Assembly: GCA_009776805.1 (NCBI GenBank)
Contig: WRNB01000003.1
Location: 1 to 37,637 of the forward strand
Direction: 5' to 3'
DNA: 37,637 nt
From: Candidatus Bathycorpusculum grumuli
Lineage (GTDB): Archaea; Thermoproteota; Bathyarchaeia; Bathyarchaeales; Bathycorpusculaceae
Made by a program: the position numbers and the translations under genes. Below, piece after piece: positions 1,599-22,190 of the stretch. The notes below the pieces were generated by a model that made no database searches, had not been told where the DNA came from, and saw nothing but the letters and a program-made list of their open reading frames with translations. Position 1 is the stretch's first letter, and every line of letters begins with the position of its first letter.

Positions 1599-2450
1599 TT
1601 TGTGTATTTTGGTTTGATGATTCGTGAGTTGTTAATCAGCAGGTTGTTCATTACGCGGCTAATCATAGTACTATACTTCATGTATTTAAAATGACTGTTT
1701 GAATAAAAAGGCAAAAGTTTCAAAATACACTGTTTTAAATTTCACCTTAAGTTAACCAAATAACGAAATAGCATATAAACTGTTTTTTTCAGATAATCAG
1801 GTGTTGTATGAGAAAAAGTTAGGTAGAGTTGGGTTTGATGTGTGAATCGCTGATTTAAGATAGCTGATTTAGATAGCTGTTTGATGTGTGTTGATGGTTT
1901 GATGGTGGTTGGGTTACGTGAGGCACCGTTTTTTTAGGAATTACGCCACCGCAGACATCAACCACAAGGGTTGAGTCTCGCACCCCGTTAATTCGTGGTG
2001 GTGTGTTGTTGGTGTTTGTGTGTGTTGGTTTTTTGTGGTTTTTGGTGGAGGGGTTGTTTTGTGTACCCACCTAAAATAGCGAAAGGCCGTCTTTTTTGGG
2101 TGATATTGAGATGATTGATGTTTGGGGTTTTTATTGGTGTTTTGTGTGAGTGGTTGGGTTGTTTTGTTAAGGGGTGTGTAAGTGTTTTTTTATGGTGAAG
2201 TGTTGTTTTGTTTGTGGTGTTTTGTTGTTTGGGTTTTGTTGGAGTTTTGTTGGTGTGTTTGGGCGTGGTTTTTTTTCTGCGAGAATTGAGGGTTTGGTGG
2301 ATTATTTGTGGTCTTGGCATGAATTTTTCTATTTCAAATAATCTACTCTAAACTATGACACTGTCTTTTTTTAATTAATCCATACTTGACGATTTAGCTG
2401 AAATAAAACATAATAATCACCAAGAGACATAAGAAAAGAAGCGGAGTATT
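1599..2450. other. Gene-less region with repeat copy 1 and a G/T-rich tract
   Basis: No convincing gene. 1600-1900 is AT-rich with no recognised feature. 1928-2088 is copy 1 of the 161-bp repeat. From about 1990 to 2320 the plus strand is almost wholly G and T, so the minus strand is A/C-rich and gives threonine/asparagine/lysine-rich open frames that are composition artefacts. A ribosome-binding site (GCGGAG, 2440-2445) precedes the methyltransferase at 2451. Confidence 0.6.
1928..2088 (-). repeat. 161-bp intergenic repeat, copy 1
   Basis: This shares its full 161-bp extent with 21873-22033 (opposite orientation, about ten differences) and its first ~117 bp with 19282-19398. The core at 1951-1981 folds into a hairpin: GC, AGAC and TCAACC pair with GGTTGA, GTCT and GC around an ACAAG loop, with one bulged base on each side. 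CCACC (1946-1950) and GGTGG (1997-2001) can close outside it. The far end is CCTAAAATAGCGAAAGGCC. Strand is given so that all three copies read alike. Function unknown. Confidence 0.85.
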
Positions 2451-3377
2451 ATGAGCGGTAAGACACCCCATGTTGTTCAATATCAAGGTTCAAAGCGGAT
2501 ACTTGCTCCGCAAATTCTACAGTATATGCCACATAAATTTAAGCGGTTGTTGGAGCCATTTTCAGGTATGGCAGCCGTGTCGATCGCTGTGGCGGTCGAA
2601 TGTCGGACGGAGCGGTATATCATCAATGACTTAAACGAACCAATTGTAAAATTGTTAAAATCCGCAATTGAAACACCATCCACACTTGTAAAAAAGTATG
2701 AAATAACGTGGTCTGAACAGTTTAAATACAAAGACGGACATGTTGAACATTTCAACCATATAAGAGATCGATTTAATTCAGGAGAACAAAGCCCTGAAAA
2801 TATGCTGTATTTGTTGGCGCGTTGCGTGAAAGGTTCTGTTCGATATGGCAAAAATGGGAAATTTAATCAATCCCCCGATAAGCGTCGTCATGGTACGAAC
2901 CCAAAAAATGTGGCAAAAAACGTTCATGCAATTTCAGCTTTGATGAAAGGTAAAGTATCTTTTTCAGCATTAGATTATCATAAAATCTTTGAGTTGGCAC
3001 AACCTGGCGATTTGGTGTATATGGATCCGCCATATCAGGGTGTAACAAATAATCGTGATAATCGCTATTTTTCTGGTGTATCATTTGATGAATTTGTTGA
3101 AGCCCTTGAAACACTTAACAACAAAGGCATTAATTACTTAATCAGTTATGACGGAAAATGTGGTGGCAGGGAATATGGGAAAGAATTGCCACAAAAATTA
3201 GAATGCACAAAAATTTTACTCAACGCAGGACTTTCCACACAAGCTACATTGCTGGGTAAGCATAACACAACTTACGAAGCCTTGTATCTTAGCAAAAATC
3301 TTTCTTTCAATAGTAAAATGCGAAATATAATTGATGAAAGCCCGAAGCAAATGACGCTATTGGAAGTATCGTTATGA
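2451..3377 (+). CDS. D12-class DNA adenine N6-methyltransferase
   Basis: A 308-residue Dam-like methyltransferase that transfers a methyl group from S-adenosylmethionine to adenine in DNA. The N-terminal YQGSKR (11-16) is the usual D12 opening motif, EPFSGMAA (35-42) is the AdoMet-binding motif I, and DPPYQG (192-197) is the catalytic motif IV. Length is normal for the class. GCGGAG lies 6 bases before the ATG. The stop overlaps the start of the next frame (3374), which carries the DNA-binding half of a broken HNH nuclease, so this is the protecting enzyme of a type II restriction-modification pair. Recognition sequence cannot be read from the protein. The gene itself is intact. Confidence 0.9.
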   Translation: MSGKTPHVVQYQGSKRILAPQILQYMPHKFKRLLEPFSGMAAVSIAVAVECRTERYIINDLNEPIVKLLKSAIETPSTLVKKYEITWSEQFKYKDGHVEHFNHIRDRFNSGEQSPENMLYLLARCVKGSVRYGKNGKFNQSPDKRRHGTNPKNVAKNVHAISALMKGKVSFSALDYHKIFELAQPGDLVYMDPPYQGVTNNRDNRYFSGVSFDEFVEALETLNNKGINYLISYDGKCGGREYGKELPQKLECTKILLNAGLSTQATLLGKHNTTYEALYLSKNLSFNSKMRNIIDESPKQMTLLEVSL

Positions 3378-4086
3378 GTAAAGATTACTCGGAAAGTTTC
3401 TTAAAATTGCTTAATTCTATAACGGCAAAACGGCCACGTGCAGTAATTCAGCATATTATTGAATATGGATATATTACATCTCAGGAATTAAAAGACACTT
3501 ACGGATATAACCACCCGCCGCGTGCTGTTCGTGATGTTCGCGAACACGGAATCCCTTTAATCACCTACGTATTGAGGGTACAGATGGCAGAAACATTGCG
3601 GCTTATAGATTCGGTGACCCTAAAGATGTCATCAATGTAATCGCCAAATCAACTGGACGAACTTTGTTATCAAAAACATTAAAGCAGGCATTAATTGGTA
3701 AGCACGGAGCGAGGTGTTTCATTTATTATGAAACTATGAGCGAAGATTTGTTGCAAGTTGACCATCGTGTACCTTATGAAATTGGTGGCGAACCGGATGA
3801 AAAGGATATTGAAAAGTATATGTTACTTTGTCCGTCCGCTAATCGAGCAAAATCATGGACATGCGAACATTGTGCAAATTGGACAAACAAAGAACCAACT
3901 TTTTGTGTTAGCTGTTATTGGGCGCACCCTGAAAATTATGAACACATCGCAGGAAAACAACAAAAAGTAATATCTGTAATGTTCACAGGGGACGAAGTTG
4001 AAGACTATAAGCGGTTAATTGAAATCTCAGGTATTGACGGGGCGCAAAAAACCATTAAGCGGTTAGTACGGGATTTTGTGGAGTAA
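3374..4086 (+). pseudogene. HNH restriction endonuclease, frameshifted
   Basis: Two overlapping frames make one protein of about 237 residues. The first (3374 to about 3570) ends in a helix-turn-helix-like stretch (RAVRDVREHGIPLITYV). The second continues from about 3571 as EGTDGRNIAAYRFGDPKDV, then carries LLQVDHRVPYEIGGE, the HNH-type DHR core, and a zinc ribbon (CEHC...CVSC). One missing base near 3569-3571 joins them. The HNH zinc site is also damaged: the expected paired cysteines read CFIY and CPSA, so the second cysteine of each pair is absent. Coupled to the methyltransferase by an overlapping start. Likely a dead restriction enzyme; an assembly error would not explain the missing cysteines. 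Confidence 0.75.
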
Positions 4087-4129
4087 GTGGTTATTGCGGG
4101 TAAACCTGCAAGTTCAGCATTACAGTTGT

Positions 4130-4262
4130 AAACGTGACAAATATGACCTCAACACACACCATCAACTCACCAACCCACAGAGATCTCAACTCGCAACACA
4201 ACACCAACCAACAACAATCACCACTACCGACTGCCAAACAACAAAACACAACAAATAAAACA
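4130..4262 (+). other. A/C-rich tract downstream of the restriction remnant
   Basis: About 130 bases with very few G residues on the plus strand. It translates to threonine/asparagine/glutamine-rich peptides in several frames. One of a family of such tracts in this window; no gene is supported. The 80 bases that follow are plain AT-rich. Confidence 0.5.
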
Positions 4263-4340
4263 AATTACAACTGTAATACTTAACAATGTTGAGGCACTAC
4301 ATAGTTTGTAGCAAATAAACAACATAAACCAGACAATCAA

Positions 4341-4529
4341 CTAAATAAGAGTGAAGAGGTAACCTGCGCCAATGTTTCTTTTTCGGTTTACTCGGGCTAA
4401 TCTTTTTTGTTCACATACAACATATTTTTCGTTAAACACTTGACTTATTGCGTTAAATTCTTCAAGGGCGAGACTTGAAAAATTTCTAAAATACCCAAGT
4501 TTTTTAGATAACACAACACAATTAAACAC
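4341..4529 (-). pseudogene. IS5-like transposase, N-terminal stub
   Basis: A 62-codon frame whose sequence matches the start of IS5-group (DDE_Tnp_4) transposases as I know them: a short helix with FRNFSSLALEEFNAISQVF, then EQKRLARVNRKRNIGAGYLF, the basic segment preceding the catalytic domain. It stops right there and none of the DDE domain follows, so this is the truncated remnant of an insertion sequence. No terminal inverted repeats were found around it. Family assignment is from memory of the motif, without a search. Confidence 0.55.
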
Positions 4530-4647
4530 ATAAACACCTTAACAATCAAATAATACGCCCGCACGTTAATAAAAACTTCATTTTAAACCAAAAAACTAGT
4601 AACAATTAAGGCCTAATCAATAAACGTAAATGATTTTTAGCTTAATT

Positions 4648-4678
4648 AAAAAAAATGAGTGCATGGAAAAAACCATGC
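4648..4678 (-). terminator. Hairpin plus T-run after rnfC
   Basis: A perfect 6-bp inverted repeat, GCATGG and CCATGC (4661-4666 and 4673-4678), is separated by a 6-base loop. On the minus strand it is followed by a T-run (eight A residues at 4648-4655 on the plus strand). It sits 10 bases beyond the rnfC stop, so it probably ends that transcript. Archaeal termination usually needs only the T-run; the hairpin is an addition. Confidence 0.6.
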
Positions 4679-4688
4679 TAAAGATTGT

Positions 4689-5984
4689 TTAGTATCTTGA
4701 TGCCATGATTGTACTTGCTAGAGGTAGACGTGATGGACAGACATATGTACATGTTCCGCAACCGATGCAGTCTTTATTCCAGAGTTTTTCTGCTTTTTCC
4801 ATATTTGCCGCCATGATTGCATTGTAGATCAGAATTGGATGTAGTTTAACTGGGCAAGCACTGATACATTTTGAGCAGTGAATACACACAGTTTGTTTTT
4901 GTTCTTTTTTGCAGTTGTTTTCAGAAAATGGAATGATACTTGAGCTTCGTTTAGTTATTGGTGCTTCAGTTGTTGGAATTGCATGACCCATCATGACTCC
5001 ACCAACAACAACTTGTCTGACATCGTTCATGTCAATGTTGTTTTGGCTAAATATGTCACTTATCGGTGTACCAATTTTTACCAGTAAATTTTTAGGTTGT
5101 GCAATTTCACCATTAAATGCAACTACCCTACTTATGAGGGGTTCGCCAGCAAATACCGCATCTGCAATTGCGTTGATTGTAGCAACATTTTGAACAATAC
5201 AGCCACTTTCGTATGAACGTTTTTCAGGTGATGGTTCATAACCAAAGAGGGCTTTCTGTAAAACGCTTGCGTCACCTTGTTGATATTTAAAGTGTCCTGC
5301 AACTATTTTTATGTCTGGCTCGTTACCAAAAACTTCTTGTAATTTTGGTATTGCTTCTACTTTAGATACTTTTGTTGCAATGGTTACAGCTGGGTTGCCT
5401 AAAATTCTTTTTATTACATTTACACCGCGTAGTATATTTTCAGTTTTTTCGACAAGTAATCGTTCATCAGCTGTGTCGTAGGGTTCACCTTCAGTAGCAT
5501 TCACAACCAAATTTTTGATTGGAAACTCTGCTGGTGGGGATAGCTTGATGTGTGTTGGAAATCCTGCGCCTCCAAGACCAATTATGCCTGCTTCGTGTAT
5601 TATATTAAGTAAATCAGCTGGTTTAGTTTTTTCTAGTTCTGCTTCACAAATTGGAGTTAATGATTTGTCTTTAGTTCTTTTACAATCAGTTTCAATGAAT
5701 ATTGCGTTTGTAAATGTTTCTAGACAGTGATTATAGATGTTTCCGATGTTAACAACTTGACCTGATATTGGACTGTGTACCGGTGAACTTATACGTTCTT
5801 TTGAGTCAGCAATTTTTTGGCCTACTGCTACAGAGTCACCTACAGCTACAAGGGGGGAAAGAGGTTTCCCCGAGTGTTGATCCAAGATAACTATGGCAGT
5901 TTTAGGGTCTGGAAATATTTCAATGGGTGTTATGCGTGCTTGATCTTTGACTTCTTTTATATGTTCGTATGGCATTTTGTTCAT
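4689..5984 (-). CDS. rnfC: RnfC-like electron transport complex subunit
   Basis: The 431-residue peripheral subunit of the ion-translocating ferredoxin:NAD oxidoreductase, which binds NADH/FMN and passes electrons through iron-sulfur clusters. The N-terminal part has the barrel-sandwich segment SPVHSPISGQV (67-77). The nucleotide-binding glycine-rich stretch is GIIGLGGAGFPTHIKLSP (133-150). Two C-terminal ferredoxin clusters are complete: cysteines 367, 370, 373, 377 and 406, 409, 412, 416. The ATG at 5984 overlaps the rnfD stop (ATGA). A GGGAG lies immediately before it, better spaced for the ATG three codons in (5975), so the start may be 5975. Followed by a hairpin terminator. Length is normal. 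Confidence 0.93.
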   Translation of the reverse strand: MNKMPYEHIKEVKDQARITPIEIFPDPKTAIVILDQHSGKPLSPLVAVGDSVAVGQKIADSKERISSPVHSPISGQVVNIGNIYNHCLETFTNAIFIETDCKRTKDKSLTPICEAELEKTKPADLLNIIHEAGIIGLGGAGFPTHIKLSPPAEFPIKNLVVNATEGEPYDTADERLLVEKTENILRGVNVIKRILGNPAVTIATKVSKVEAIPKLQEVFGNEPDIKIVAGHFKYQQGDASVLQKALFGYEPSPEKRSYESGCIVQNVATINAIADAVFAGEPLISRVVAFNGEIAQPKNLLVKIGTPISDIFSQNNIDMNDVRQVVVGGVMMGHAIPTTEAPITKRSSSIIPFSENNCKKEQKQTVCIHCSKCISACPVKLHPILIYNAIMAANMEKAEKLWNKDCIGCGTCTYVCPSRLPLASTIMASRY

Positions 5985-7159
5985 CTCCCAAAGGGTTTAT
6001 GGATTCCTATACGGTCTAAGAGTGGTACAGTAAAGTTCATTATTAGCAATGCAAGTAATGCGCCACCAAAGAAGTTCATGTATGTTTGAATAATTACAGT
6101 TAGTACACCTAAGCCAATACCAAATATTATTTGTCCAGTTTTAGTATACGGAGTTGTAGCAGGATCAGTAGCCATAAAGAATCCTAAGAAAATAGAGCTT
6201 CCGATAAACAATTCAAACAGTAAACGTGTCATTGGGTCTCCACCGTAGATACCAGTCATAATTACAGACATCACAGCAACACTACCAAAGTATGAAGCAG
6301 TAACTTTCCATTTGAAATAATCTCGTAGCAAGAAAATTAGTACAGCACCGACAATGATCACAAGTATACTAGATGCTCCGCCAGGCCATCCGTGGAATTT
6401 AGTCAAAAGCATTACAGACTCAAGACTAGCAGGGTTAGCTGATCCTGGGTGACTGTAACAACCTTGCAGGTACATACCAAACATGTTTTTATCAATAGCA
6501 CTTGCAAGTTGAGGCATTCCTAGACCGCCGAGTGAAGCATCAGTTGTATTATATGCAGCCCAGTGTTCTTTTGTAAGGAACACAGAAAAGAGAAATGGTA
6601 ACAATACTATGAATTTTGCGGCGGCCGCTGGGTTTAGATATTTACGTCCCAGTAGTCCTCCTTGTAGTTTCTTGAAAAAGACAAGACCAAAGAAGGAAAT
6701 TATGGCTACGTAAATAAAGCACATAGGAGCACTCAATGCTTGAAGGGGCATTACTTCCACAGATCTTGCCATACCAGGAAGACCAAGTGAGTAACAAAGA
6801 GTTACAATTAACCCGAAAACTGCGGCTGACATTGTATTTATTTCACTGTCAACAGCGGCTTTTCCGATTATAAAGTCACTCAATACAGCTACTCCAACAG
6901 CAATCAATGCATTTATCAAAAGAATAGCACCGAGAGGCATTGCATAAAAGCCAGTTATTTCAGCAGTAGCAAATGATTCCATTTGGCTTTGTGTTGGCGT
7001 TGTAACTTGCCACCACATAGCAGCCGTGACGATTGTTATAATCATCAATGCAACAAAGGTGTAGTTCATTATGCGAGTTTTTGACATTGTACCAGTAATT
7101 TGTGGGGGTTGTGAAACAACCAAATCTTTAGGTTTTTCAACAGAGGATTGATTAGTCAT
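5981..7159 (-). CDS. rnfD: RnfD-like membrane subunit
   Basis: About 392 residues, integral membrane, NqrB/RnfD family. The start at 7159 is chosen because AGAGGT lies 8 bases upstream; an upstream in-frame start at 7186 lacks this. A ~45-residue cytoplasmic N terminus precedes roughly nine to ten hydrophobic helices. The family signature near the end is clear: FFMATDPATTPYTKTGQIIFG followed by a final helix. I cannot find the S/TGAT motif whose threonine carries covalent FMN in bacterial RnfD; the equivalent loop appears to read GSANPASLES. The stop overlaps the rnfC start by four bases. None of rnfG, E, A or B is next to the pair. Confidence 0.88.
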   Translation of the reverse strand: MTNQSSVEKPKDLVVSQPPQITGTMSKTRIMNYTFVALMIITIVTAAMWWQVTTPTQSQMESFATAEITGFYAMPLGAILLINALIAVGVAVLSDFIIGKAAVDSEINTMSAAVFGLIVTLCYSLGLPGMARSVEVMPLQALSAPMCFIYVAIISFFGLVFFKKLQGGLLGRKYLNPAAAAKFIVLLPFLFSVFLTKEHWAAYNTTDASLGGLGMPQLASAIDKNMFGMYLQGCYSHPGSANPASLESVMLLTKFHGWPGGASSILVIIVGAVLIFLLRDYFKWKVTASYFGSVAVMSVIMTGIYGGDPMTRLLFELFIGSSIFLGFFMATDPATTPYTKTGQIIFGIGLGVLTVIIQTYMNFFGGALLALLIMNFTVPLLDRIGIHKPFGR

Positions 7160-7186
7160 ATAGTAACCTCTTAATATGAAAAACAA

Positions 7187-7719
7187 ATTAACCTTACTTG
7201 ATATTAAACTCTTTCGGAAAAATAATAAGTAAGAAAAAAATTGTTTGTGCCATCTAATTGGTTGTTGGTTTTTTCTTATGTTACTGTTAAATTTGTGTTT
7301 GTTTTATTTTGGTTAAAGTATTTTTTTCATTTTGGTTTTGGGTTAAAATTATTTTTTGTTAGATTTTCATTGTATTTATTCGGTTTATATTGTTGATGTA
7401 GTTTATGTGTTTGTGATTGGGTTCAATGTTTGTTGTAAATTTTTTGTCGTTGGTGTAAGTATTCTATTTTTGTAAAGTATTGTGCTTTGAAATATTTTGT
7501 GGATTGTTTTTTCAATATCTGTTTGTTGTCGGTTGGTGATCTTTATAAGAGAATGTAAAAGAGAAGTTTGCAGTGTTTGTTTATCATTGTTTTTTCTGAA
7601 TATGTTATCTGTGAAGCAATAAAATCAGGTGATTGTTAAAACTGGTCGAAAGCAATTAAGCTGAAGTTTATGCTCGCTATAGGAAATTTTATATCGATAA
7701 AGTTTGATGTTAATACTTT
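7187..7719. promoter_or_regulatory. Divergent promoter region between rnfD and the radical SAM gene
   Basis: About 530 bases without a gene. 7260-7510 is T/G-rich on the plus strand. A TATA-like TTTTATAT lies at 7687-7694, about 28 bases before the GTG at 7720. That spacing puts the transcription start at or next to the start codon, so the radical SAM mRNA is probably leaderless, in keeping with the lack of a ribosome-binding site. I could not place the rnfDC promoter. Confidence 0.5.
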
Positions 7720-8826
7720 GTGATTAAATTGGTTCAAACTAGACCGCCCTTGTACATGGTAACTTGGAGATGTACGAGACGATGTGTAGGTAATTGTATT
7801 TACTGTAGTTATGTACCTAAATTTGCTAAGGATAACGAAGTAAACACTGAAACTGGTAAAAAAATTGTTGATGAAATGTATAATTTTGGTGCTAAATGGT
7901 TTGGTATTAGTGGAGGGGAACCATTAGTACGTGAAGACATTTTTGAAATTATTGAATACGCTAAAAAAATGTATGGTATGGAAGTGAGTTTAATCACAAG
8001 TGGGTTTGCTTTTGATCAAAAACGTTTAGATCTGCTAACAAAATATGAAGTTCACACGGCAGTGAGTATTGATGGTGATAAAGCTACAAACGACATTGTG
8101 AGAGGACAAGGCAGTTACGATAAAGCCACATATGCCATGCAAAAACTTGGAGAAAACGGTTTACTTGACTGTATAGTTACAACTATGAACAAATACAACA
8201 TTAACGTGCTTGAACACACTTGTCAATTAGCAGCTGAATACGGCGGTAAAATGGTTGTTTACCACAACCTTGTGCCAGTTGGAAGAGCAAGTGATAACAT
8301 GATAGACTTGGCTCCAACAGCAGATCAATATGAAACAGCACTTAACCAACTATACGATTATGAAATAAAATATAATCGTAACAAGAAAAACAATAATTTC
8401 CGCGTCAATGTTTATTCACCATTCTATGCAAGAATTGTAAAACAGCGAAACCCAGCAAGATTTTGGGATTGGTTTACCAACGAATTCTTAGGTAAATGTA
8501 CGATCGGCGGAGACTATATAGGTGTAACAGAAAACGGTGACTATAGACCATGTGGTTTTCATGAAGGCTACCGTTTAGCTAACGTTAATAACAAGAGTTT
8601 AAAAACAGCATGGGAAGAACTTCAAACTAACCCACTTCATCTTAAACTAAGAGACAAGAGTCAAATTAAAGGTAAATGTGGGATTTGTGAATACAGAGAA
8701 ATCTGTGGTGGATGTAGAACACGTGCTGAATTTTATACAGGCGATTTATTTGAGACTGATCCCGCGTGTGCATACATACCGCAAGTTATGCGAGAAAACT
8801 CTGAACACCTACTAAAGAAACAATAA
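7720..8826 (+). CDS. Radical SAM/SPASM enzyme, NirJ/AhbC/AhbD-like
   Basis: A 368-residue radical S-adenosylmethionine enzyme. The cluster-binding CxxxCxxC is C22-VGN-C26-IY-C29. GGEP (about residues 66-69) is the AdoMet-binding motif. The C-terminal SPASM domain carries KCGICEYREICGGCRTRA and a following TGD...DPAC, a pattern typical of the heme-modifying group (NirJ, AhbC, AhbD) and of PqqE-like enzymes, which bind auxiliary 4Fe-4S clusters. An extra cysteine pair occurs earlier (KCTIGGDY...RPCGFHEG). No heme-biosynthesis or precursor-peptide gene is adjacent, so the substrate is open: siroheme decarboxylation route, peptide modification or other. GTG start, probably leaderless. Confidence 0.82.
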   Translation: MIKLVQTRPPLYMVTWRCTRRCVGNCIYCSYVPKFAKDNEVNTETGKKIVDEMYNFGAKWFGISGGEPLVREDIFEIIEYAKKMYGMEVSLITSGFAFDQKRLDLLTKYEVHTAVSIDGDKATNDIVRGQGSYDKATYAMQKLGENGLLDCIVTTMNKYNINVLEHTCQLAAEYGGKMVVYHNLVPVGRASDNMIDLAPTADQYETALNQLYDYEIKYNRNKKNNNFRVNVYSPFYARIVKQRNPARFWDWFTNEFLGKCTIGGDYIGVTENGDYRPCGFHEGYRLANVNNKSLKTAWEELQTNPLHLKLRDKSQIKGKCGICEYREICGGCRTRAEFYTGDLFETDPACAYIPQVMRENSEHLLKKQ

Positions 8827-8872
8827 ACCAGTTTTATTTTACTTTTCTTTTTATTTTTTTAAAAATTATTTT
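8827..8872. terminator. T/A-rich bidirectional terminator
   Basis: Between the converging radical SAM gene and the GT-C gene the 39-base gap is packed with T-runs on the plus strand and A-runs that read as T on the minus strand. Oligo-T tracts are the usual archaeal termination signal, so this short segment probably ends both transcripts. Confidence 0.5.
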
Positions 8873-11163: not shown

Positions 11164-11186
11164 ACAAAAGTCACCTCTTAGTATAA

Positions 11187-14096: not shown

Positions 14097-14115
14097 ACGC
14101 TGGCTGATAAGCAAC

Positions 14116-15027
14116 ATGCGAAAATTCAGTACCCCACAAAAAATCTATGAAATCGGAAAAGTAAAGGTCGGCGGCCAACCAGGTGAGTTACCAACATTTC
14201 TCATTGGTTCTATTTTCTGGCTTGGTCAAAAGATGGTTTCCGATGCAAATAAAGGCATTTTTGACGCAACAGCCGCAGAAGACATCATTAACAGGTGCCA
14301 AGTACAAAGCGATATTTCAGGTGTACCTTTTGCTCTTGACATTGTTGGCACAACAGAAACAGCATTTGAGAAATATTTTGACTTCGTTGCAGCACACACT
14401 GATGTTCCACTTATGCTTGACGCTATGAGTCCTAAAACACGTATGGCAGCAGCAAATATTGCAAAGAAAATGGGTCTACAAGAAAGGTGTTTTTACAATT
14501 CAGTCTACAAAGGTGTAACTGATGTTGAATTAGAAAACCTAAAAGAAAGCGGCATTAAAATGTCAATTGTTCTTGCAGACGACCCACACGACACATCACT
14601 CGCCGGTAGAATGAATGTTGTTGAAGAAGCTTTAGCACTTGCAGTAAAAGGTGGAATTACAAAACCACTCGTTGACACATCCATGCCATCTTTCCAACCA
14701 GATATGGGAAGTTCAGTTGTAGCATTTCCAATGATGAAAGAAAAGTATGGCCATCCAGTAGGTACAGGTAGCGGCAACGTTGTTACAACTATGGGTTGGG
14801 TAAAAGCTAACATTGCAAAAGAATTCAGAAAAGGTACAGTCACAGCAACAAACGCAATCTTACAAGTCATGGGTGCTAACTGGTTAATGTTTGGTCCAGC
14901 TGAACAAGCTGAATGGGTTTTCCCAGCAACAGCAGTTGTTGATACATACATCGCATCTGCAGCAGCAGATTTCGAAACACAACCACTAGATGTTGAGAGT
15001 CACCCAATATTCAAGATGTTTGCCTAA
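14116..15027 (+). CDS. mtrH: MtrH-type methyltetrahydropterin:corrinoid methyltransferase
   Basis: A 303-residue TIM-barrel protein matching the catalytic MtrH subunit of tetrahydromethanopterin S-methyltransferase across its length, for example GKVKVGGQPGELPTFLIGSI near the start and MGANWLMFGPAEQAEW near the end. It moves methyl groups between methyl-tetrahydromethanopterin and a corrinoid protein. None of the membrane subunits MtrA-G is present, so it is a stand-alone MtrH, as known in non-methanogenic archaea and for corrinoid methyltransferase systems using other methyl donors. Partner: the corrinoid protein immediately upstream. Weak ribosome-binding site; likely co-transcribed. T-rich terminator follows at 15033-15070. 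Confidence 0.92.
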   Translation: MRKFSTPQKIYEIGKVKVGGQPGELPTFLIGSIFWLGQKMVSDANKGIFDATAAEDIINRCQVQSDISGVPFALDIVGTTETAFEKYFDFVAAHTDVPLMLDAMSPKTRMAAANIAKKMGLQERCFYNSVYKGVTDVELENLKESGIKMSIVLADDPHDTSLAGRMNVVEEALALAVKGGITKPLVDTSMPSFQPDMGSSVVAFPMMKEKYGHPVGTGSGNVVTTMGWVKANIAKEFRKGTVTATNAILQVMGANWLMFGPAEQAEWVFPATAVVDTYIASAAADFETQPLDVESHPIFKMFA

Positions 15028-15077
15028 CATCTCCCCTTATTTTATTTTCAAAATAGTGTTTGTTTTTATTTAAGTAA

Positions 15078-15470
15078 GTGTATATAGTTATTATGAATCC
15101 TCTTCGATGGCTAGAATTAATCATACTGACCACAGTTTTAACTATACTTGCGGTTTACTTTATTCCAGCCGAGTCAATACTTGGTTACTTACGTTCTGCG
15201 CTTGCTATTATTTTCGTGTTTATTATTCCAGGTAATTGTCTAGTTAATATACTGTTTAGAAAAAGAAACGCTATAGATATTATAGAAAAAATTGTATTAA
15301 GTGTTGCATTAAGTTTTGGTATAGTAGGTATTACGGGATTGTTTCTTGGTCTCACAGCTATTGGGTTAAATTTTACGTCAATTACTATTTCACTAAGCAG
15401 TATTACACTTGTTTTAGCAATAATTGCGTTTATTTTAAAAAATAATGATTCAAAAATTTTAAAAAAATAA
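15078..15470 (+). CDS. DUF1616-like small membrane protein
   Basis: A 130-residue protein with four hydrophobic segments at about 14-29, 36-60, 72-92 and 98-118. The layout resembles the N-terminal membrane part of DUF1616 proteins: a helix, then IIFVFIIPGNCLVNILFRKR, an acidic-basic linker and SVALSFGIVGITGL. That is shorter than full DUF1616 proteins, which carry an added outside domain. The GTG at 15078 gives five more residues than the ATG at 15093, and neither has a clear ribosome-binding site. Function unknown; such proteins often sit near archaeal surface-glycan genes. Confidence 0.6.
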   Translation: MYIVIMNPLRWLELIILTTVLTILAVYFIPAESILGYLRSALAIIFVFIIPGNCLVNILFRKRNAIDIIEKIVLSVALSFGIVGITGLFLGLTAIGLNFTSITISLSSITLVLAIIAFILKNNDSKILKK

Positions 15471-15510
15471 AACAACAAGACATGTAGTCATGGTAAATAA
15501 GTAAAAATAG

Positions 15511-16557
15511 TCAGTGAATAAAATTTTGAAGGATCGCAATTGTTGCCTGTTTAGTAAAAGGGGGTAAATTAATTTCTGAAAAATGGGGTATACATTCAAA
15601 AGGTGCCTGGTTAAGAATTAGATTACCAAATTTTTTACTTGTTATAATTATGTCACCAAATTCTTTTGGAGTTAATTCTTTTTTGAATTCATCATCCAAT
15701 TTTACAGCTGCCAACAAAAATGTAGCAGAAATAGAGTCTGAAGCTATAATTTGTTCTAACAATGTAAAAATGGTTTTTTTGTCTCCAAAAACTTGGGCTT
15801 TTGAAAGTTCAATAGCCAAATATTCTATGGGTAGTTGTCGTTCGGAAAGTCTGCATGCTAACATTCGGCCTTTATGCGGTCCTTCTTGTTTATCTGCGGC
15901 TTCTTTAACTACTTGTCTTACTACGTTGGCTACAAGTTGTCCAACAGTTGAAGCTGGTCCGCCAAATTCAATTGTCTCGCCTTGTCCAGTTATTGCTACA
16001 GACAAACTATCAGTTATAGTTCCAGTTGCAATATCGCCACTGTATCGACTGCGTACATCATAATCGTTCATTGCAGCGGTTTTTGCTTCCGTTGCAGTTA
16101 AAAACAGACTGACTAGACAACTGTCGGTTGGATTAGCATTTAAAAAAACTATTATGTTGATTGTTCCACGTGTGTAATGTTTACTTTCTATAATTTCACC
16201 TGCAGATTCACCGTGTCGCCATCCAGCAGTTGCTATGGCAGTTATAGTTATATTACCTGTTTGTCGTGTTGCTATGGCGAGGTTTTGAATTTTTGCGGCG
16301 GTAAGCATTGCAATGTAGTCAGTTGTGATTTGCAGATTTTTTTGTGCATCATGTATCAAATTTACTGGGTTGTCGTGGAGATGTATGTCGTTATAGTTAT
16401 CAGGTACAGAAACATTTAGTATTGCATTTACTTTTTTGTAACCACCGTTGTATATGCCTGAGCTAAGAACAGTTAGTGGAGTTTCACTTATTATTGCAAC
16501 TATGTTGTCTTTTTCCACTATTTTTGCAGATGAGTTGGGTAATAGTTGTTGTTTCAT
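15511..16557 (-). CDS. cbiZ: Adenosylcobinamide amidohydrolase
   Basis: A 348-residue protein whose first ~220 residues match CbiZ: VLSSGIYNGGYKKVNAILNV (30-49), a central TAGWRHGES, and a stretch with LFLTATEAKTAAMNDYDVRS. CbiZ cleaves the nucleotide loop linkage of adenosylcobinamide so that imported corrinoids with the wrong lower base can be rebuilt. The last ~125 residues (from about 225) form a helical extension I do not recognise. The gene lies close to a corrinoid protein and MtrH, which supports a local corrinoid economy. No ribosome-binding site is evident, only GTGTGAT before the ATG. Confidence 0.85.
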   Translation of the reverse strand: MKQQLLPNSSAKIVEKDNIVAIISETPLTVLSSGIYNGGYKKVNAILNVSVPDNYNDIHLHDNPVNLIHDAQKNLQITTDYIAMLTAAKIQNLAIATRQTGNITITAIATAGWRHGESAGEIIESKHYTRGTINIIVFLNANPTDSCLVSLFLTATEAKTAAMNDYDVRSRYSGDIATGTITDSLSVAITGQGETIEFGGPASTVGQLVANVVRQVVKEAADKQEGPHKGRMLACRLSERQLPIEYLAIELSKAQVFGDKKTIFTLLEQIIASDSISATFLLAAVKLDDEFKKELTPKEFGDIIITSKKFGNLILNQAPFECIPHFSEINLPPFTKQATIAILQNFIH

Positions 16558-16772
16558 TTTATCACACGGTACTTGTTTTTAAGTTTATGACCTTTAAAAG
16601 GTTTTTGAGAGCATAAATTTCAAAATTAAAAAGGTTTTTTTCGCAATTATTTGTTAATATGTTCATGTTTTTCACGTTTTTTTCTACACATGTTCACATT
16701 TTTTTGATTTTTACAATCAGACGGATAAACTTAAATAAGATGTAAAGAAAGAGAAAACATGAGGACAAAAAA
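16558..16772. promoter_or_regulatory. Divergent promoter region, cbiZ and asparagine-synthase-like gene
   Basis: 215 bases between divergent genes. ACTTAAATAAG at 16729-16739 is the best TATA candidate for the plus-strand gene, and GAGG (16762-16765) serves as its ribosome-binding site. A near-palindrome ACCTTTAAAAGGT at 16589-16601 lies near the cbiZ start and could be an operator; this is weak in AT-rich DNA. Confidence 0.35.
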
Positions 16773-17762
16773 ATGACACTTGACCCAAAAGAATACAGTC
16801 ACTACATCCCAGAAACAAAAAACGTAATTAACAAAGTCGTCAAAAATAATCTAGGAGACAGCATATTATTCTCCGCTGGAACCGATACTTCAATAATTGC
16901 CTATGAAGCCATAAAATACAAACCCGAAATATCAACATTAACCATAGAATTTAAACAAGGCGATCCAAAAGATGCCAAATATGTTAAAAAAATGGTTAAA
17001 TTTTTAAAACTTAAAAACCACCAAACCTACGTTTTTGACATTAAAGAAGCCTTAGAAAATATACCCAAAGTTGTTAAAGCATTAAAAACTTTTGACCCTA
17101 TGGATGTAAGAAACAGCATGGCAATTTACATTGGACTAACACTACTAAAAGAAAAAGGGTTATCTAAAATTTTTACAGGCGACGGGTTAGACGAATTCTT
17201 TGGTTACCCATGGCAATTCCACCTCTCAGAAGAAGATCTTTATAAAAAACAGTTAGACATGTGGACAGAAATGAGCTTTAGCAGCAAACCACTATCAAAA
17301 TCTTTAGGAATAGAAGTAAAACAACCCTACCTAGACCCAATGTTTATGGAGTGGGCAAAAAAACTACCGATAAAAATTAAAATCAACATGCATAACAACG
17401 AAAAATACAGCAAATGGATACTACGCAAAGCATACGAAAACATCATACCAAAAGAAGTTATTTGGAGACCTAAAACACCACTTGAAACAGGAACAGGAAC
17501 ATCTTCATTAAACACTATCTTCCAAGAACAATACACTAACACTGAATTTGAAGAAAAGAAAAAAGACATATTTGAAAAAGATAACGTACAAATCCGCGAT
17601 AAAGAACACCTAATCTATTATGAAACGTTCAGAAAAATTTTTGGCAAACCATCAGAAATCTTTCCAAAAACAAACAACGACACAAAAACATGCCCACAAT
17701 GTAAAGGCCACATTAAAATAAAAACACAGTTTTGCAAAATATGCGGATCCTACCCCATCTAA
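16773..17762 (+). CDS. Asparagine-synthase-like ATP pyrophosphatase with zinc ribbon
   Basis: A 329-residue protein of the asparagine synthase C-terminal family, which activates a carboxylate with ATP. The PP-loop reads SAGTDTS (34-40) instead of the common SGGxDSS. FTGDGLDEFFGY (134-145) matches the family's GDGxDE motif. The amino-terminal glutamine-hydrolysing domain is absent, and a C-terminal zinc ribbon is present (Cys307, 310, 321, 324). It may therefore use free ammonia or a carrier protein, or modify a tRNA or protein rather than make asparagine. GAGG lies 7 bases before the ATG. It stands alone between cbiZ and htpX. Intact. Confidence 0.75.
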   Translation: MTLDPKEYSHYIPETKNVINKVVKNNLGDSILFSAGTDTSIIAYEAIKYKPEISTLTIEFKQGDPKDAKYVKKMVKFLKLKNHQTYVFDIKEALENIPKVVKALKTFDPMDVRNSMAIYIGLTLLKEKGLSKIFTGDGLDEFFGYPWQFHLSEEDLYKKQLDMWTEMSFSSKPLSKSLGIEVKQPYLDPMFMEWAKKLPIKIKINMHNNEKYSKWILRKAYENIIPKEVIWRPKTPLETGTGTSSLNTIFQEQYTNTEFEEKKKDIFEKDNVQIRDKEHLIYYETFRKIFGKPSEIFPKTNNDTKTCPQCKGHIKIKTQFCKICGSYPI

Positions 17763-17916
17763 CTTTCCACAGTACAACGCATAAAAAAAATTAAACATAC
17801 AAAAACAGTTTCCCAAAAAAAATGAACAAGAACAGAGAACAGGAAAAAATTGTTCTGGGAAAGATTTATTTCTTTATTTAATTGTTTGTGAACTAACATA
17901 ATAGGAGAAAAATATA

Positions 17917-18969
17917 GTGGCAAATCTATCTCAGTTAAAGTCAGCAATGACAGTATCAATCTTTCTTTCGCTATTCATATTTGGGCTTTTTGTTTATGCA
18001 ATAGCTTACATAATAGCACCTTCTAACTGGTTAACTTGGCTTTTCATTGCATGCGGCTGTTCAGCACTGTTTATTCTAATCCAGTATGCAATAGGCCCAG
18101 CAATAGTAACTATGTCAACAAAACTAAAATATGTAAAACCAGGCGAGTCACCATGGCTTGAAAACACTGTAAAAGAACTTGCAGATAAAAGCGGTTTACC
18201 CATGCCCAAACTTGCAATAGTACCCAATAATACACCTAATGCTTTTACGTTTGGCAGAACCACAAAAAGTGCCACTTTAGCTGTGCATGAAGGATTACTA
18301 CGACAACTTAATCAAGGTGAAATCCGTGGAGTAATAGCCCATGAATTAGGCCACATCAAACACAAAGATTATGTTATAATGACTATACTTTCCGCATTAC
18401 CATTAATTGCATACATAATTGCACAAACTGCTTTTCATGCAAGCATCATCTCAAACGCAGGAAGAAGTAAAAATAAAAACGACAACGGTGGCTTGATTTT
18501 ACTCATCATTGGAGCAGCATCATTTCTTGTGTACATCATAACTTTTCTAATTGTCATGCGACTTAGCAGATTACGCGAACATTTCGCAGACGCTTTTGCA
18601 GCATATGTTACTAATTCACCCCGCGATCTAGAAAGTGCCTTAGCTAAAATCACCTATGGTTTATCAATTTCACCAAAACCACCTGAAGGTGCAAGAGCAT
18701 TTTACATTGGAGACCCAGCAACAGCAAAAAAAGAAGTTAAACTAATAATGGAAAACAAAAACAAGTATGACCTTGACAAAGATGGCGTGCTTGATGAACG
18801 CGAACTTCAAATGGCAATGGAACATGAAGCACACAACACATGGACACAACTAAACGGCATGTTTGCAACACATCCACCAACATTTAAACGCATAATATTA
18901 CTAAAAGAAATTGAAAAAGAAATGGATACAGGGCAATACGCCAGCGATAAAATGTACGACCACATATAA
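17917..18969 (+). CDS. htpX: HtpX-like M48 membrane metalloprotease with EF-hand insertion
   Basis: A 350-residue zinc metalloprotease for membrane protein quality control. Two helices (about 13-35 and 38-62) precede the catalytic HELGH (142-146); two more follow (about 152-172 and 192-214). The third zinc ligand lies in EHFADAF, Glu221. An unusual segment at 285-296 reads DLDKDGVLDERE, a textbook 12-residue EF-hand calcium-binding loop (ligands at positions 1, 3, 5, 9 and 12, with glycine at 6), set between the metalloprotease core and the end of the domain (THPPTFKR). GTG start; GGAG about 11 bases upstream. The EF-hand suggests calcium sensing or stabilisation, which I infer only. Confidence 0.9.
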   Translation: MANLSQLKSAMTVSIFLSLFIFGLFVYAIAYIIAPSNWLTWLFIACGCSALFILIQYAIGPAIVTMSTKLKYVKPGESPWLENTVKELADKSGLPMPKLAIVPNNTPNAFTFGRTTKSATLAVHEGLLRQLNQGEIRGVIAHELGHIKHKDYVIMTILSALPLIAYIIAQTAFHASIISNAGRSKNKNDNGGLILLIIGAASFLVYIITFLIVMRLSRLREHFADAFAAYVTNSPRDLESALAKITYGLSISPKPPEGARAFYIGDPATAKKEVKLIMENKNKYDLDKDGVLDERELQMAMEHEAHNTWTQLNGMFATHPPTFKRIILLKEIEKEMDTGQYASDKMYDHI

Positions 18970-19281
18970 AACATTTCACACCACTTTTTTGGTACCATTA
19001 CAAGAAAACACTTTCGACGGCAATACCATCAGACTATCGATAGTTAAAGAAATCGAATTACACAATTTAACAACATAAAAACCCATTAAACAAAAAAACA
19101 CAAACAAAAAAACCTTGTGTCCATAACCCGCATACACGAATTACAAAATAATTTTTTCAAACCATTATGATTATCATTTTTGTTGTCAAGCCAATATGGT
19201 TTATTATTTTTGCATGTTTGTAGTCTTTTTAGGTAATTATAACGTGTTTTTCAAAATTTGTATACTGGTTATGGTCGCATG

Positions 19282-19398
19282 GTTTTTTTAGGATTTACAC
19301 CACCGCAGACATCAACCACAAGGGTTGAGTCTCGCACCCCATTAATTCGTGGTGGTGTGTTGGTGGTGTTTGTGTGTGTTGGTTTTTTGTGGTTTTGG
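19282..19398 (-). repeat. Intergenic repeat, copy 2 (truncated)
   Basis: Matches the first ~117 bp of copies 1 and 3, including the 31-base hairpin core (19305-19335). It is preceded by a shared flank (GGTTATGGTCGCATG at 19267-19281) also found in altered form beside copy 3. The right part ending in the GAAAGGCC terminus is missing. Inverted relative to copy 3; the pair brackets the secreted-protein operon. Confidence 0.85.
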
Positions 19399-19480
19399 GT
19401 TTGATGTTGTGTTTTGTGTTTGAGTGAGAATTTTTGTGTTGTTTGTTTTTTTAGTGGAAATTGTGTTTGAAAAACTAGTG

Positions 19481-19503
19481 GGTTATGGACATATGGTTTT
19501 TTT
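19481..19503 (+). repeat. Left 23-bp direct repeat of the secreted-protein island
   Basis: GGTTATGGACATATGG followed by seven T residues, identical to 22191-22213 and in the same orientation, 2.7 kb apart. It contains the palindrome CATATG and resembles the outer flank of repeat copies 2 and 3. Confidence 0.75.
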
Positions 19504-19740
19504 CTTTTGGTGTGTTTATTGTGTTTTGTTTGTTGTTTGTTGTGTTTTTTCTTCTTTTTGTATACGCTATTTATAGCGTACACGTTTGTGTGATTGGCTG
19601 TAAATGTTTGTTTTTGTGTTTTGTGTGTGGAGTGTGTTGTTGTTTTTTCAAAATTTTAAGATGTTTTGTTGGTTATTTTGTGTACGCTAAAAAACTGCAA
19701 AATTCAGGATCTAACAAAAGAAAAGAAAGGTACTGAAATG

Positions 19741-20919
19741 TTACCTGTGTCTCTTTTTAACTACTACTCCGATAGCTAATGCTACAACTACTACCGCTAC
19801 AACCGCCACAACCATAAACACTAGCATATTACCATATGACCCAGTATCAGAAACACCATCACCAACATCATAGGTTCCGCCATATGCCATGTTACTATAT
19901 GCACTGAATTCTCCAGTATTAGCCCAAATACCTACTGCAATACCATGAACATTACCAGGATAGACTTCATCTAGCATCATTCGGACATCCCAATAAGGTC
20001 TAAGCTCATAACCAACAGGAGAAGTAACCAACGTAGCTACAACATTACTTCTAGACACCTTAAAATCTGTCACTACCACATCATCATACATATCATAAGA
20101 GTAACCCTTCAAATTCTCTAAAGCTATATCAATTGCCTGCTCTTTTGAAACATTTATTGAGGTGTCTCCAATTGTATAGAGTGCCCGAGTATCATACACT
20201 GAAATTATGTGGTTATTTGTATTAACGCTGATTTCTAGTTTTGTATAGTCTGCACCGTTTATTGTGTGTGCCCATTTTAATTGTGTTTGTTCTGTTCCCC
20301 AAAAAGTGCTAACTAATACGTCAAGTTTCGTGTTTTCTTGGGTTGTTGTGGAATTTTTTGATAGATTAGCACTGTTTAGCATTGTTATTAGGTTGTTTGA
20401 ATTAATGTTGGTGGTTTGTTGGTATTTTTCAAGAAAATCAACTATTGCGTCATGACGGTTAGCATAATTTGTAGTTGTGATAACTTGCGAGTCTAGAGGT
20501 GTAATGAGATAGCTTGTTAAGACGTCTTTTTCAAAAGAAAAAGAGACCTCTAAGGCACTATTTTCATTACCATTGCCTTCGTTTGGAGTTAGTGCATACA
20601 GTAGGTTAGTTATTTTTCTGTCAATATTGCTGAGGGGTATGCCATCCATTATTGAGTTGATTTTGAGGTTGAGGTTGTATTTTGATAAATCTAGTTGCAT
20701 TACATTTTGTATGATGTTTACAGCTTCTTCTTGGGCAGTAGTTGTTTGATTTGGATTCAGCGGTGGGGTGGTTGTTCCTTTTGGAGGTTCAGGAGCTAAA
20801 AGGTTCTCTTGAGCAGCGACTGGTTGGTTTGCAACTGGAGTCTGAAAAGCTCCAAAAAAAGACATTACAATTAGCACAGCAAGTAAGGTTGTGAAAAATT
20901 TTGTTAATTGTTTTTTCAT
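19741..20919 (-). CDS. Secreted, membrane-anchored PepSY-like protein
   Basis: About 392 residues. A signal peptide (MKKQLTKFF then a hydrophobic core, cleavage near AQE at about 37) is followed by a proline-rich linker. Two halves of alternating strands and helices follow; the second, starting VSKEQAIDIALENL and ending GIWANTGE, looks like a PepSY domain. The C terminus is a 23-residue hydrophobic helix with KKRHR, so the protein is anchored at the cell surface. The ATG at 20919 is preferred: AGGAGG (20928-20933) is 8 bases upstream and overlaps the upstream stop codon, implying translational coupling with the secreted clan CD-like protein. PepSY domains often inhibit peptidases, so an inhibitor or partner role is possible. 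Confidence 0.6.
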   Translation of the reverse strand: MKKQLTKFFTTLLAVLIVMSFFGAFQTPVANQPVAAQENLLAPEPPKGTTTPPLNPNQTTTAQEEAVNIIQNVMQLDLSKYNLNLKINSIMDGIPLSNIDRKITNLLYALTPNEGNGNENSALEVSFSFEKDVLTSYLITPLDSQVITTTNYANRHDAIVDFLEKYQQTTNINSNNLITMLNSANLSKNSTTTQENTKLDVLVSTFWGTEQTQLKWAHTINGADYTKLEISVNTNNHIISVYDTRALYTIGDTSINVSKEQAIDIALENLKGYSYDMYDDVVVTDFKVSRSNVVATLVTSPVGYELRPYWDVRMMLDEVYPGNVHGIAVGIWANTGEFSAYSNMAYGGTYDVGDGVSDTGSYGNMLVFMVVAVVAVVVVALAIGVVVKKRHR

Positions 20920-20931
20920 CAATTTTTCCTC

Positions 20932-21801
20932 CTAAGGTAACCCCACATACATATTTCCATAGACTACTAACCACCCCGAGTTTGTTTTCCCTGATAGGTC
21001 TGAGTATGCATAAGAGGTATAAAATAACGTTTGCGCCAGCATAGATAGGGCTTGAGCTGTTGAGTACCCTTGACACACGTAATAATAGTACAAGCCAGCA
21101 ACTTGAGAATAGTTAGAGTGTATTGTTGGATCAATTTCCCATGAATATTGTGGTGATCCGCCTGACAGAGGATTGCCATATGGTACGTTATCGTTCCAGC
21201 CTAAGTAAACTTGACTACCTGAAGAACCCCACTCAGCTATATTTTGGTTATGTGTAAAGGCTCTAGGTAATCCACGGCATACACATGTGTTAGGATTTGG
21301 ATCTGGGCTAATTGCTGTTTTGCAGTGCCATATAAATGAATTAACGTTCTTTGAGGAGGTTAGCTGGTAAATTTCAGAATCCCATACTTGACTAGTTCCC
21401 TGATACATAGAAAGCCTATGATGTGCATAACCGCTTGTACATGAAGCCCAAGCCAAGTGTCCTTTGGAATAGATCACAGCTGAGTCATAATTTTGTAGGT
21501 CGTAGACACAGTAATCAAAATTGACATCTGTACAGAGAGAATTGCGTACATCGTACAACCAATAATAACGGTTTAGCTCGAGCGATATGTAGTCAGCGGT
21601 GTTTTCAGATAACTGTACTTCCTGTTGGGTGTCCAATATAATTATTTTACCATTGTCATCTACGTATGGTACATAATAATTTGGTAGAAAGTTGGCTGCG
21701 CAAATATCTGCTGAAGCGTAGTTCCCAAATGTTGAAGGAGCTATTGAAAGTATCAACAAACAAATTAAAAGTACACTTGTAATTCTTAATGCTTTTTTCA
21801 T
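20932..21801 (-). CDS. Secreted protein, possible clan CD cysteine peptidase
   Basis: 289 residues from the ATG at 21801, chosen because GGAG is 10 bases upstream and the signal peptide then starts MKKALR, with a hydrophobic core up to about 21. Mature features resemble the caspase-hemoglobinase fold: strand plus His (VIYSKGH, His115), helix, strand plus Cys (FIWHC, Cys160), VYLGW (198-202), a long helix after GYSTAQAL, and a closing strand WLVVYGNMYVGLP much like the GDP strand of gingipain-type enzymes. His is not followed by the usual glycine. Ten or more cysteines could form disulfides. No close family is recognised; the peptidase reading is inference. Two-gene operon with the PepSY-like protein. 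Confidence 0.5.
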   Translation of the reverse strand: MKKALRITSVLLICLLILSIAPSTFGNYASADICAANFLPNYYVPYVDDNGKIIILDTQQEVQLSENTADYISLELNRYYWLYDVRNSLCTDVNFDYCVYDLQNYDSAVIYSKGHLAWASCTSGYAHHRLSMYQGTSQVWDSEIYQLTSSKNVNSFIWHCKTAISPDPNPNTCVCRGLPRAFTHNQNIAEWGSSGSQVYLGWNDNVPYGNPLSGGSPQYSWEIDPTIHSNYSQVAGLYYYYVCQGYSTAQALSMLAQTLFYTSYAYSDLSGKTNSGWLVVYGNMYVGLP

Positions 21802-21872
21802 ATTTTTCTTTTCTCCGTATATATTATGCAAAACAGATGTATTATTTAAAAGTTGTTTTTACGAAGATATGT

Positions 21873-22033
21873 GGCCTTTCGCTATTTTAGGTGGGTGCAC
21901 ATAACACCCCTCCACCAAAAAACTACAAAAAACCAACACACACAAACACCACCAACACACCACCACGAATTAATGGGGTGCGAGACTCAACCCTTGCGGT
22001 TGATGTCTGCGGTGGTGTAAATCCTAAAAAAAC
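21873..22033 (+). repeat. 161-bp intergenic repeat, copy 3
   Basis: Full-length copy in the opposite orientation to copies 1 and 2, the same length as copy 1 and with roughly ten differences. The hairpin core is at 21980-22010. Its one change within the hairpin (GCAAG for ACAAG, read on the other strand) falls in the loop and not in a stem. The end GGCCTTTCGCTATTTTAGG is the same as in copy 1. Confidence 0.85.
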
Positions 22034-22190
22034 CATACGCCAATAACCATCGCACACGTTTTGCAGATCACTTTTCCACAATAAACTAAACTATTACACG
22101 ACTACAAAAATAGTGTTTTTATAGGGTTTTTGCAACCAAAATATTTACTATGATATCACAAAAAAAGTTACACTATAATGCTTGTGCGCA

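What the first reader, a model, noticed from the sequence alone, without database searches (positions are those of the whole stretch)
1928..22033. A repeat family with an absolutely conserved hairpin core
Three copies (1928-2088, 19282-19398, 21873-22033) share a 31-base hairpin with two bulges and an outer 5-bp stem. Differences between copies fall outside the stems or in the loop. The core also stays open in one frame in all copies (PPRINGVRDSTL then VDVCGG), so either a small peptide or an RNA/DNA structure could be under selection. I know no named element with this sequence.
Basis: partly seen in the sequence, partly recalled or inferred. Interest (0 to 1): 0.7.

Follow-up and report, generated by a model that had tools for sequence, protein, structure and literature searches.

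The report
Shared hairpin of archaeal mobile elements
A short hairpin sequence that unrelated jumping genes and integrated plasmids of one archaeal lineage (Bathyarchaeia) all carry just behind their last gene; the copies in this window are broken transposon ends, but relatives show that the hairpin is kept by selection.

Summary
The repeat is real. A ~58-bp core (TTTTTTTAGGAATTACGCCACCGC-AGACATCAACC-ACAAG-GGTTGAGTCT-CGCACCCC) occurs 16 times in this Bathyarchaeia genome, three times in the window, and in 11 other genomes of the same family. It is not an isolated hairpin gene and not a peptide. All window copies lie in mobile-element debris: core plus 75 bp plus an ISL3-type terminal repeat (8-bp target duplications in intact relatives), behind IS110 remnants or a second MITE. 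Elsewhere the core follows ISL3 and IS110 transposase genes.

Its best-kept home is an apparently undescribed family of 5-7 kb elements integrated in a tRNA gene (tyrosine integrase, HUH-type Rep, swappable defence cargo). There it is an isolated 54-bp block, 10-61 bp behind the stop codon of different cargo genes, in the same orientation, and 91-92 bp from attR in four elements. Four stem pairs change on both sides between plasmids while loop and flanks stay: selection for structure. In the window's own genome the stem is not absolute (7 of 16 copies are weakened).

Best explanation: a 3'-end stem-loop/insulator at the right boundary of mobile elements. Rivals: rolling-circle origin, or recombination/insertion hot spot.

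The parts
1925..1986 (+). core copy 1 (T-tract, AGGAATTACGCCACCGC, bulged hairpin, CGCACCCC)
1987..2063 (+). GT-rich spacer 'D2' of the ISL3-type right end
   Evidence: shared with own C20, C109, C133 and copy 3
2064..2088 (+). ISL3-type right terminal repeat TACCCACCTAAAATAGCGAAAGGCC
   Evidence: exact pattern match, >100 copies in relative G024; complete relatives have 8-bp target duplications
1795..1927 (+). remnant of the 3' end of an IS110-family transposase gene and its downstream region
   Evidence: aligned by eye to C69/C102/C13 copies; PF02371 hit at C69:39-293 just upstream of that core
19279..19340 (+). core copy 2
   Evidence: model R1 E=2e-22
19341..19400 (+). truncated D2 spacer (terminal repeat missing)
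   Evidence: family D3
19106..19289 (.). MITE 'B' with terminal repeats AAAAAAACCTTGTGTCCATAACC / GGTTATGGTCGCATGGTTTTTTT, abutting core copy 2
   Evidence: (I4, D6, D11)
19481..19503 (+). solo end of MITE 'B'
   Evidence: D11
21975..22036 (-). core copy 3
   Evidence: model R1 E=1e-22
21898..21974 (-). D2 spacer of copy 3
   Evidence: I1
21873..21897 (-). ISL3-type right terminal repeat of copy 3
   Evidence: pattern match with 1 mismatch
22026..22213 (.). MITE 'B' abutting core copy 3
   Evidence: (I9)
18970..24466 (.). accessory island between HtpX (17917-18969) and hisI (24467-24799) that holds core copies 2 and 3; the two genes are adjacent (about 65-130 bp apart) in relatives G001, G021, G030

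Best explanation
The core is a portable stem-loop module carried at the 3' (right) boundary of several unrelated mobile elements of one Bathyarchaeia family: tRNA-integrated plasmids with a HUH-type Rep, ISL3-family and IS110-family insertion sequences, and MITE-like derivatives. It lies just behind the last gene, in that gene's orientation, about 90-100 bp inside the element's end in the plasmids and the ISL3-type elements. Inferred mechanism: the plus strand folds in the 3' part of the element's transcript, often just after a T-tract. There it acts as a 3'-end/termination and insulation signal, ending or stabilising the element's mRNA and separating it from what lies beyond (the host chromosome when integrated; attP and the co-directional integrase gene in the circle). 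Shown here: position, orientation, conservation, compensated stem. Inferred: that it acts in RNA and that it terminates or insulates. The window copies are decayed right ends of an ISL3-type element and neighbouring MITEs inside accessory islands, and are probably no longer functional. Confidence in what it is (module of mobile elements, structure selected in plasmids): about 0.85; in the mechanism: about 0.4.
For: 16 own copies and 11 further genomes, confined to two genera of one family. Structure selected: G146/G029 have TCGGAG-ACAAG-CTCCGA and G147/G149 have TCGACC/GGTCGA in place of TCAACC/GGTTGA; all 10 pairs are kept in all six plasmids, and four pairs changed on both sides. Plasmid layout: 28-bp att direct repeats of a tRNA 3' end, integrase (PF00589), HUH Rep with invariant PHFH, variable defence-like cargo (FRG plus GmrSD, DEAD helicase, OLD-like TOPRIM). 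Core 10-61 bp behind the cargo stop codon, same orientation in 6 of 6, and 91-92 bp before attR in four elements. The same placement behind ISL3 (own C133, C109, C29; G024 C6/C132; G020), IS110 (own C69, C102) and an integrase remnant (G021). ISL3 nature of the right end: 8-bp target duplications cgaaaagt, gatttttg, tcttattt, aaataact. Single-sided stem changes are mostly G-U-compatible on the plus strand.
Against: No expression data. The T-tract is short or missing in some copies (G146, G007a, G026), so it is no canonical archaeal terminator everywhere. The unpaired flanks (CACCGC......CGCACCCC) are conserved more strictly than a plain terminator needs. C-to-T drift of the plus strand in these repeats could by itself produce G-U-compatible changes. 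A related Rep plasmid (L078, G011) has only 36 bp between the matching genes and so no core there. Three solitary copies (G007:C3, G014, G026) have no gene directly in front.
Confidence: 0.42

Rival explanations
1. The core is the rolling-circle replication origin (or single-strand origin) of the HUH-Rep plasmids. IS and MITE copies are captured origins that could let passenger DNA be mobilised by Rep in trans.
For: The six core plasmids encode an HUH-type Rep (weak Rep_1 match in 6 of 9 members of the alignment, best E 0.0043). The core is an isolated conserved block kept while sequence on both sides is exchanged. A hairpin with strictly kept single-stranded flanks suits a Rep site. On the minus strand the loop usually reads CTTGY; CTTG occurs at nick sites of several HUH replicons (own knowledge).
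Against: It does not lie beside rep but behind different cargo genes, always co-oriented with them. It also sits in ISL3 and IS110 elements, which have no use for such an origin. Another conserved GC-rich repeat block at the end of the rep operon is an equal candidate origin. No Rep gene of this family was found in the window's own genome. The loop is CCTGT in G149.
Confidence: 0.25
2. The core is a recombination or insertion hot spot: a cassette-exchange site, or a preferred target of MITEs and ISs, at which modules on both sides are swapped.
For: In the own genome upstream modules (IS110, ISL3, MITE-B, MITE-125) and downstream modules (D1, D2) occur in all four pairings for IS110 and MITE-B. 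Four divergent MITE-B copies abut the same T-tract. In plasmids the core borders coincide with cargo junctions, and in G007/G029 an extra gene sits between core and att. The variable gene in front of the core is integrase-like in G007a and has relatives in G147b and G149.
Against: 16 near-identical copies allow ordinary homologous recombination to shuffle flanks. No recombinase was tied to the site. No crossover point or target duplication was mapped at the core. It lacks attC architecture.
Confidence: 0.2
3. The core is part of the bridge RNA or another small RNA of an IS110/IS1111-type element (compare the sRNAs encoded next to the ISPpu9 transposase).
For: In own C69 and C102 the core lies behind an IS110-family transposase gene. 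ISPpu9 transposase is regulated by small RNAs encoded beside its gene (PMC8450116).
Against: The core occurs with ISL3 elements and HUH-Rep plasmids that lack an IS110 gene.
Confidence: 0.05
4. A small conserved peptide (PPRINGVRDSTL...VDVCGG) is encoded.
For: The minus-strand frame is open across most copies.
Against: A 1-bp indel shifts it in half of the own copies; the N-terminal part is absent outside D2 copies; no conserved start; compensated stem changes alter residues.
Confidence: 0.01

Closest known systems
ISL3-family insertion sequences and their MITEs
   Same: Right terminal repeat GGCCTTTCGCTATTTTAGGTGGGTA; complete relatives start GGYTATTCGTCAAATCAGG and make 8-bp target duplications; an ISL3 transposase gene (PF01610) lies upstream in own C133
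   Different: Window copies have one end only; the core is not an ISL3 terminal repeat and also occurs without ISL3
Rolling-circle plasmids (HUH Rep, Rep_1-like) integrated in tRNA genes of archaea
   Same: HUH motif, tyrosine integrase, att direct repeats in a tRNA 3' end
   Different: Rep family without a Pfam or PHROG assignment above cut-off; no match in the plasmid or phage collections; origin not located
Integron attC sites (archaeal integrons, PMC9668308)
   Same: Imperfect hairpin with an extrahelical base behind single co-oriented genes, in variable cargo
   Different: No L boxes, very short loop, and the GTTRRRY/RYYYAAC boxes are lost in the GGAG/CTCC variants; no second site behind the extra gene in G007/G029
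REP/BIME elements as targets of IS110-family elements
   Same: Dispersed hairpin repeats next to IS elements
   Different: Restricted to mobile elements, one fixed orientation behind genes, few copies
Transcription-blocking hairpins near IS ends (for example IS200; own knowledge)
   Same: A stem-loop close to the element's end, where it can stop read-through
   Different: Here one sequence module is shared by unrelated element families

Membership tests
ISL3 family (for the 161-bp copies) | DDE_Tnp_ISL3 transposase in the element | tested here: met
   PF01610 at own C133:25-267, just upstream of a core + D2 + terminal repeat; not present beside the window copies
ISL3 family (for the 161-bp copies) | terminal inverted repeats and 8-bp target duplication | tested here: inconclusive
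   met for ~130-bp MITEs with the same right end; window copies have only the right end
Integron attC | R''/R' boxes RYYYAAC / GTTRRRY | tested here: not met
   ACTCAAC/GTTGAGT fits some copies, but CTCCGAGT in G146/G029 does not
Integron attC | L boxes and variable terminal structure between R boxes | tested here: not met
   only a 5-nt loop
Integron attC | integron integrase IntI nearby | not tested
   integrases match generic PF00589 or archaeal phage integrase models; the IntI-specific domain was not checked
Rolling-circle origin (dso) | HUH Rep encoded by the replicon | tested here: met
   invariant PHFH and tyrosine-bearing YQLNH motifs, weak Rep_1
Rolling-circle origin (dso) | nicked by Rep at a defined site | not testable with these tools
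   biochemistry needed
IS110/IS1111 bridge RNA | encoded by an IS110-family element | tested here: not met
   core present in elements without IS110
Known RNA family (Rfam 15) | score above a family's gathering cut-off | tested here: not met
   (only tRNA hits; a DicF match of 21.5 bits against a cut-off of 48)
Archaeal transcription terminator | T-rich tract behind a gene, co-directional | tested here: inconclusive
   co-directional in 6 of 6 plasmids and in the IS contexts; T-tract of 5 or more in most but not all copies

The most novel reading that the evidence does not exclude
The core is a new kind of archaeal cassette-exchange site: a folded single-stranded hairpin, not an attC, used by a plasmid-borne recombinase or HUH enzyme to swap defence genes and IS modules between unrelated mobile elements.
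Probability: 0.12. Interest if true: 0.82.

Novelty: new variant of a known kind. Interest (0 to 1): 0.5.

Why it matters
One 54-58-bp structured module shared by a rolling-circle-type plasmid family and two unrelated IS families is unusual. It marks a common functional need at the right end of archaeal mobile elements, and a route by which they exchange parts. It also exposes an apparently undescribed family of defence-carrying integrative plasmids in Bathyarchaeia, and gives a small, testable sequence with natural compensatory mutants.

Tried and rejected
Peptide: rejected. Outer stem: rejected, present in D2 copies only. CRISPR-like repeat: rejected; no arrays, tandem copies only ~103 bp apart in C133/C109. 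tRNA or tRNA-like: ARAGORN and Rfam give nothing at the core; the tRNA matches are att sites or host tRNAs. Phylum-level hits G450 and G472 (E ~1e-3) show no hairpin and are taken as chance. Viral contigs: none with the core or the Rep; plasmid and phage collections: no Rep match; PDB: no sequence match. AlphaFold of Rep from a single sequence failed (mean pLDDT 33) and was not used. No complete ISL3 element carrying the core between two terminal repeats was found, because contigs break inside it.
Full report
Observation. The three copies exist as described and the central bulged hairpin is intact in all of them. A covariance model of the core (R1) finds 16 copies in the own genome and copies in 12 of 257 genomes of the class, all in two genera of one family. 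A phylum-wide sample adds only two marginal, hairpin-less hits, taken as chance. No viral contig holds the core, and Rfam has no family for it.

The module and its borders. Lining up the 16 own copies shows that only about 58 bp are common: T-tract, AGGAATTACGCCACCGC, hairpin, CGCACCCC. Upstream of it lie different things: the end of an IS110-family transposase gene (C3a, C102, C69, C28, C13; PF02371 confirmed at C69:39-293), the end of an ISL3-family transposase gene (C133, C109, C29; PF01610 at C133:25-267), a MITE with TATGGTTTTTTT ends (C3b, C3c, C9, C147), or a ~130-bp MITE (C20). Downstream lies either D1 (ends ..GGTATCAATGGCAGATTTTCATGAGAG) or D2 (ends TACCCACCTAAAATAGCGAAAGGCC). The D2 end is the right terminal repeat of an ISL3-type family: complete ~130-bp relatives start GGYTATTCGTCAAATCAGG and are flanked by exact 8-bp duplications in several cases (cgaaaagt, gatttttg, tcttattt, aaataact). 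Relative G024 holds more than 100 such ends.

Where it is best kept. In G147 (two elements), G149, G146, G007 and G029 the core sits in integrated elements of about 5-7 kb. Order: attL in a tRNA 3' end; tyrosine integrase (PF00589); variable cargo (FRG plus GmrSD_N, DEAD helicase, OLD-like TOPRIM); genes of 118 and 95 aa; a ~318-aa Rep with the HUH signature PHFHxxGF and YQLNH, weakly like Rep_1 (6 of 9 members, best E 0.0043); a second variable gene (wHTH, integrase-like, DUF5677 or unknown); the core; about 91 bp; attR (G029's attL lies outside its contig). The att sites are 28-bp direct repeats; Rfam recognises the attL copy as a tRNA of 117-127 bp, so probably with an intron. Between elements the sequence before the core is mostly unrelated up to TTTAGG, and in G007/G029 an extra gene begins just behind CACCCC. 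So the core is an isolated conserved block between exchangeable parts. No Rep relative was found in the plasmid or phage collections or in viral contigs, and none in the own genome.

Selection on structure. Across the six plasmids all ten pairs are formed and four pairs changed on both sides, with three stem versions (AACC/GGTT, GACC/GGTC, GGAG/CTCC), while the loop (mostly RCAAG) and the unpaired flanks stay. On the mixed alignment of 26 copies the covariation score exceeds all 500 shuffles, though related rows can do that too. In the own genome the stem is looser: the CAAGTG(T/C)AAGGGTTG versions lose inner pairs without compensation, as expected of decaying IS ends.

Position and orientation. 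In the six plasmids the core starts 10-61 bp behind a stop codon, always in that gene's orientation, and ends 91-92 bp before attR in the four without the extra gene. ISL3 elements of three genomes (own, G024, G020), the own IS110 copies and an integrase remnant in G021 show the same order. In the window the distance from the end of the core to the end of the ISL3 repeat is 102 bp. This shared placement in otherwise unrelated elements is the main reason for preferring a 3'-end/insulator role. In the excised plasmid the core would separate the second cargo gene from attP and the co-directional integrase gene. That step, and that the active form is RNA, are inferences.

Window context. Copies 2 and 3 lie in a 5.5-kb island between HtpX and hisI; these genes are adjacent in relatives G001, G021 and G030. 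Copy 1 lies beside a D12 DNA methyltransferase and an HNH gene. These are accessory regions, and the window copies look like fossils: one-sided ISL3 ends and neighbouring MITEs.

Alternatives. A rolling-circle origin remains possible: Rep is present, the module is isolated and its flanks are strict. But it does not explain the IS contexts or the co-orientation with cargo, and another conserved GC-rich block lies at the end of the rep operon. A recombination or insertion site fits the shuffled flanks and the repeated MITE insertions at the T-tract, but no enzyme or crossover was tied to it, and it fails the attC features tested. Archaeal integrons are known (PMC9668308), but their attC sites share the standard attC folding. 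An IS110 bridge RNA or sRNA is contradicted by contexts without IS110. A peptide is contradicted by frameshifts and structure-driven substitutions.

Verdict. A real, MGE-borne structured module with good comparative evidence for selection and an unproven function; new in its sharing across unrelated elements, ordinary in its window copies.

Noticed in passing
own copies C28 and C13 against C102/C69; window 1586-2320 and 19340-19640: Decaying IS copies drift strongly strand-asymmetrically: in C28, A>G 19 and C>T 16 against T>C 3 and G>A 2 on the gene-sense strand, giving GT-rich (or CA-rich) intergenic tracts. A strand-specific mutational process is suggested.
   Followed up: partly
L119-L122, L124, L125: Apparently undescribed family of tRNA-integrated HUH-Rep plasmids in Bathyarchaeia with swappable defence-like cargo (FRG + GmrSD, DEAD helicase, OLD-like TOPRIM).
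   Followed up: partly
about L120:10732-10803 (G147), with counterparts in L122, L124, L125, L119, L121: Second conserved block at the end of the Rep operon: GC-rich repeats GCTTCGCGGGCTTCGCCTCGCTCCGCTCC followed by CCAAACGAWACGCC; a candidate origin.
   Followed up: no
G024 genome: More than 100 ISL3-type MITE ends in one MAG, many at contig edges.
   Followed up: no
19106-22213: Two secreted-protein genes (19741-20922, 20932-21831) lie between inverted copies of MITE-B + core + D2, like a composite element.
   Followed up: no
22297-22569 and 23420-23924: MazE/AbrB-type antitoxin gene and a ParE-type toxin with an upstream partner, in the same island.
   Followed up: no
L123 about 7890-7945 and L127 about 7755-7805: A different conserved hairpin (CTGGGACGGCGACRTCATCCCCC ... 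TCCCAGT) lies upstream of solitary cores in G007 and G026; possibly another small RNA or repeat.
   Followed up: no
L194 (G031), downstream of HtpX: MITE-B-like ends (GTTAATTATGGATGTATGGAAAAAAACATACGTCCATAAG) also occur in G031.
   Followed up: no
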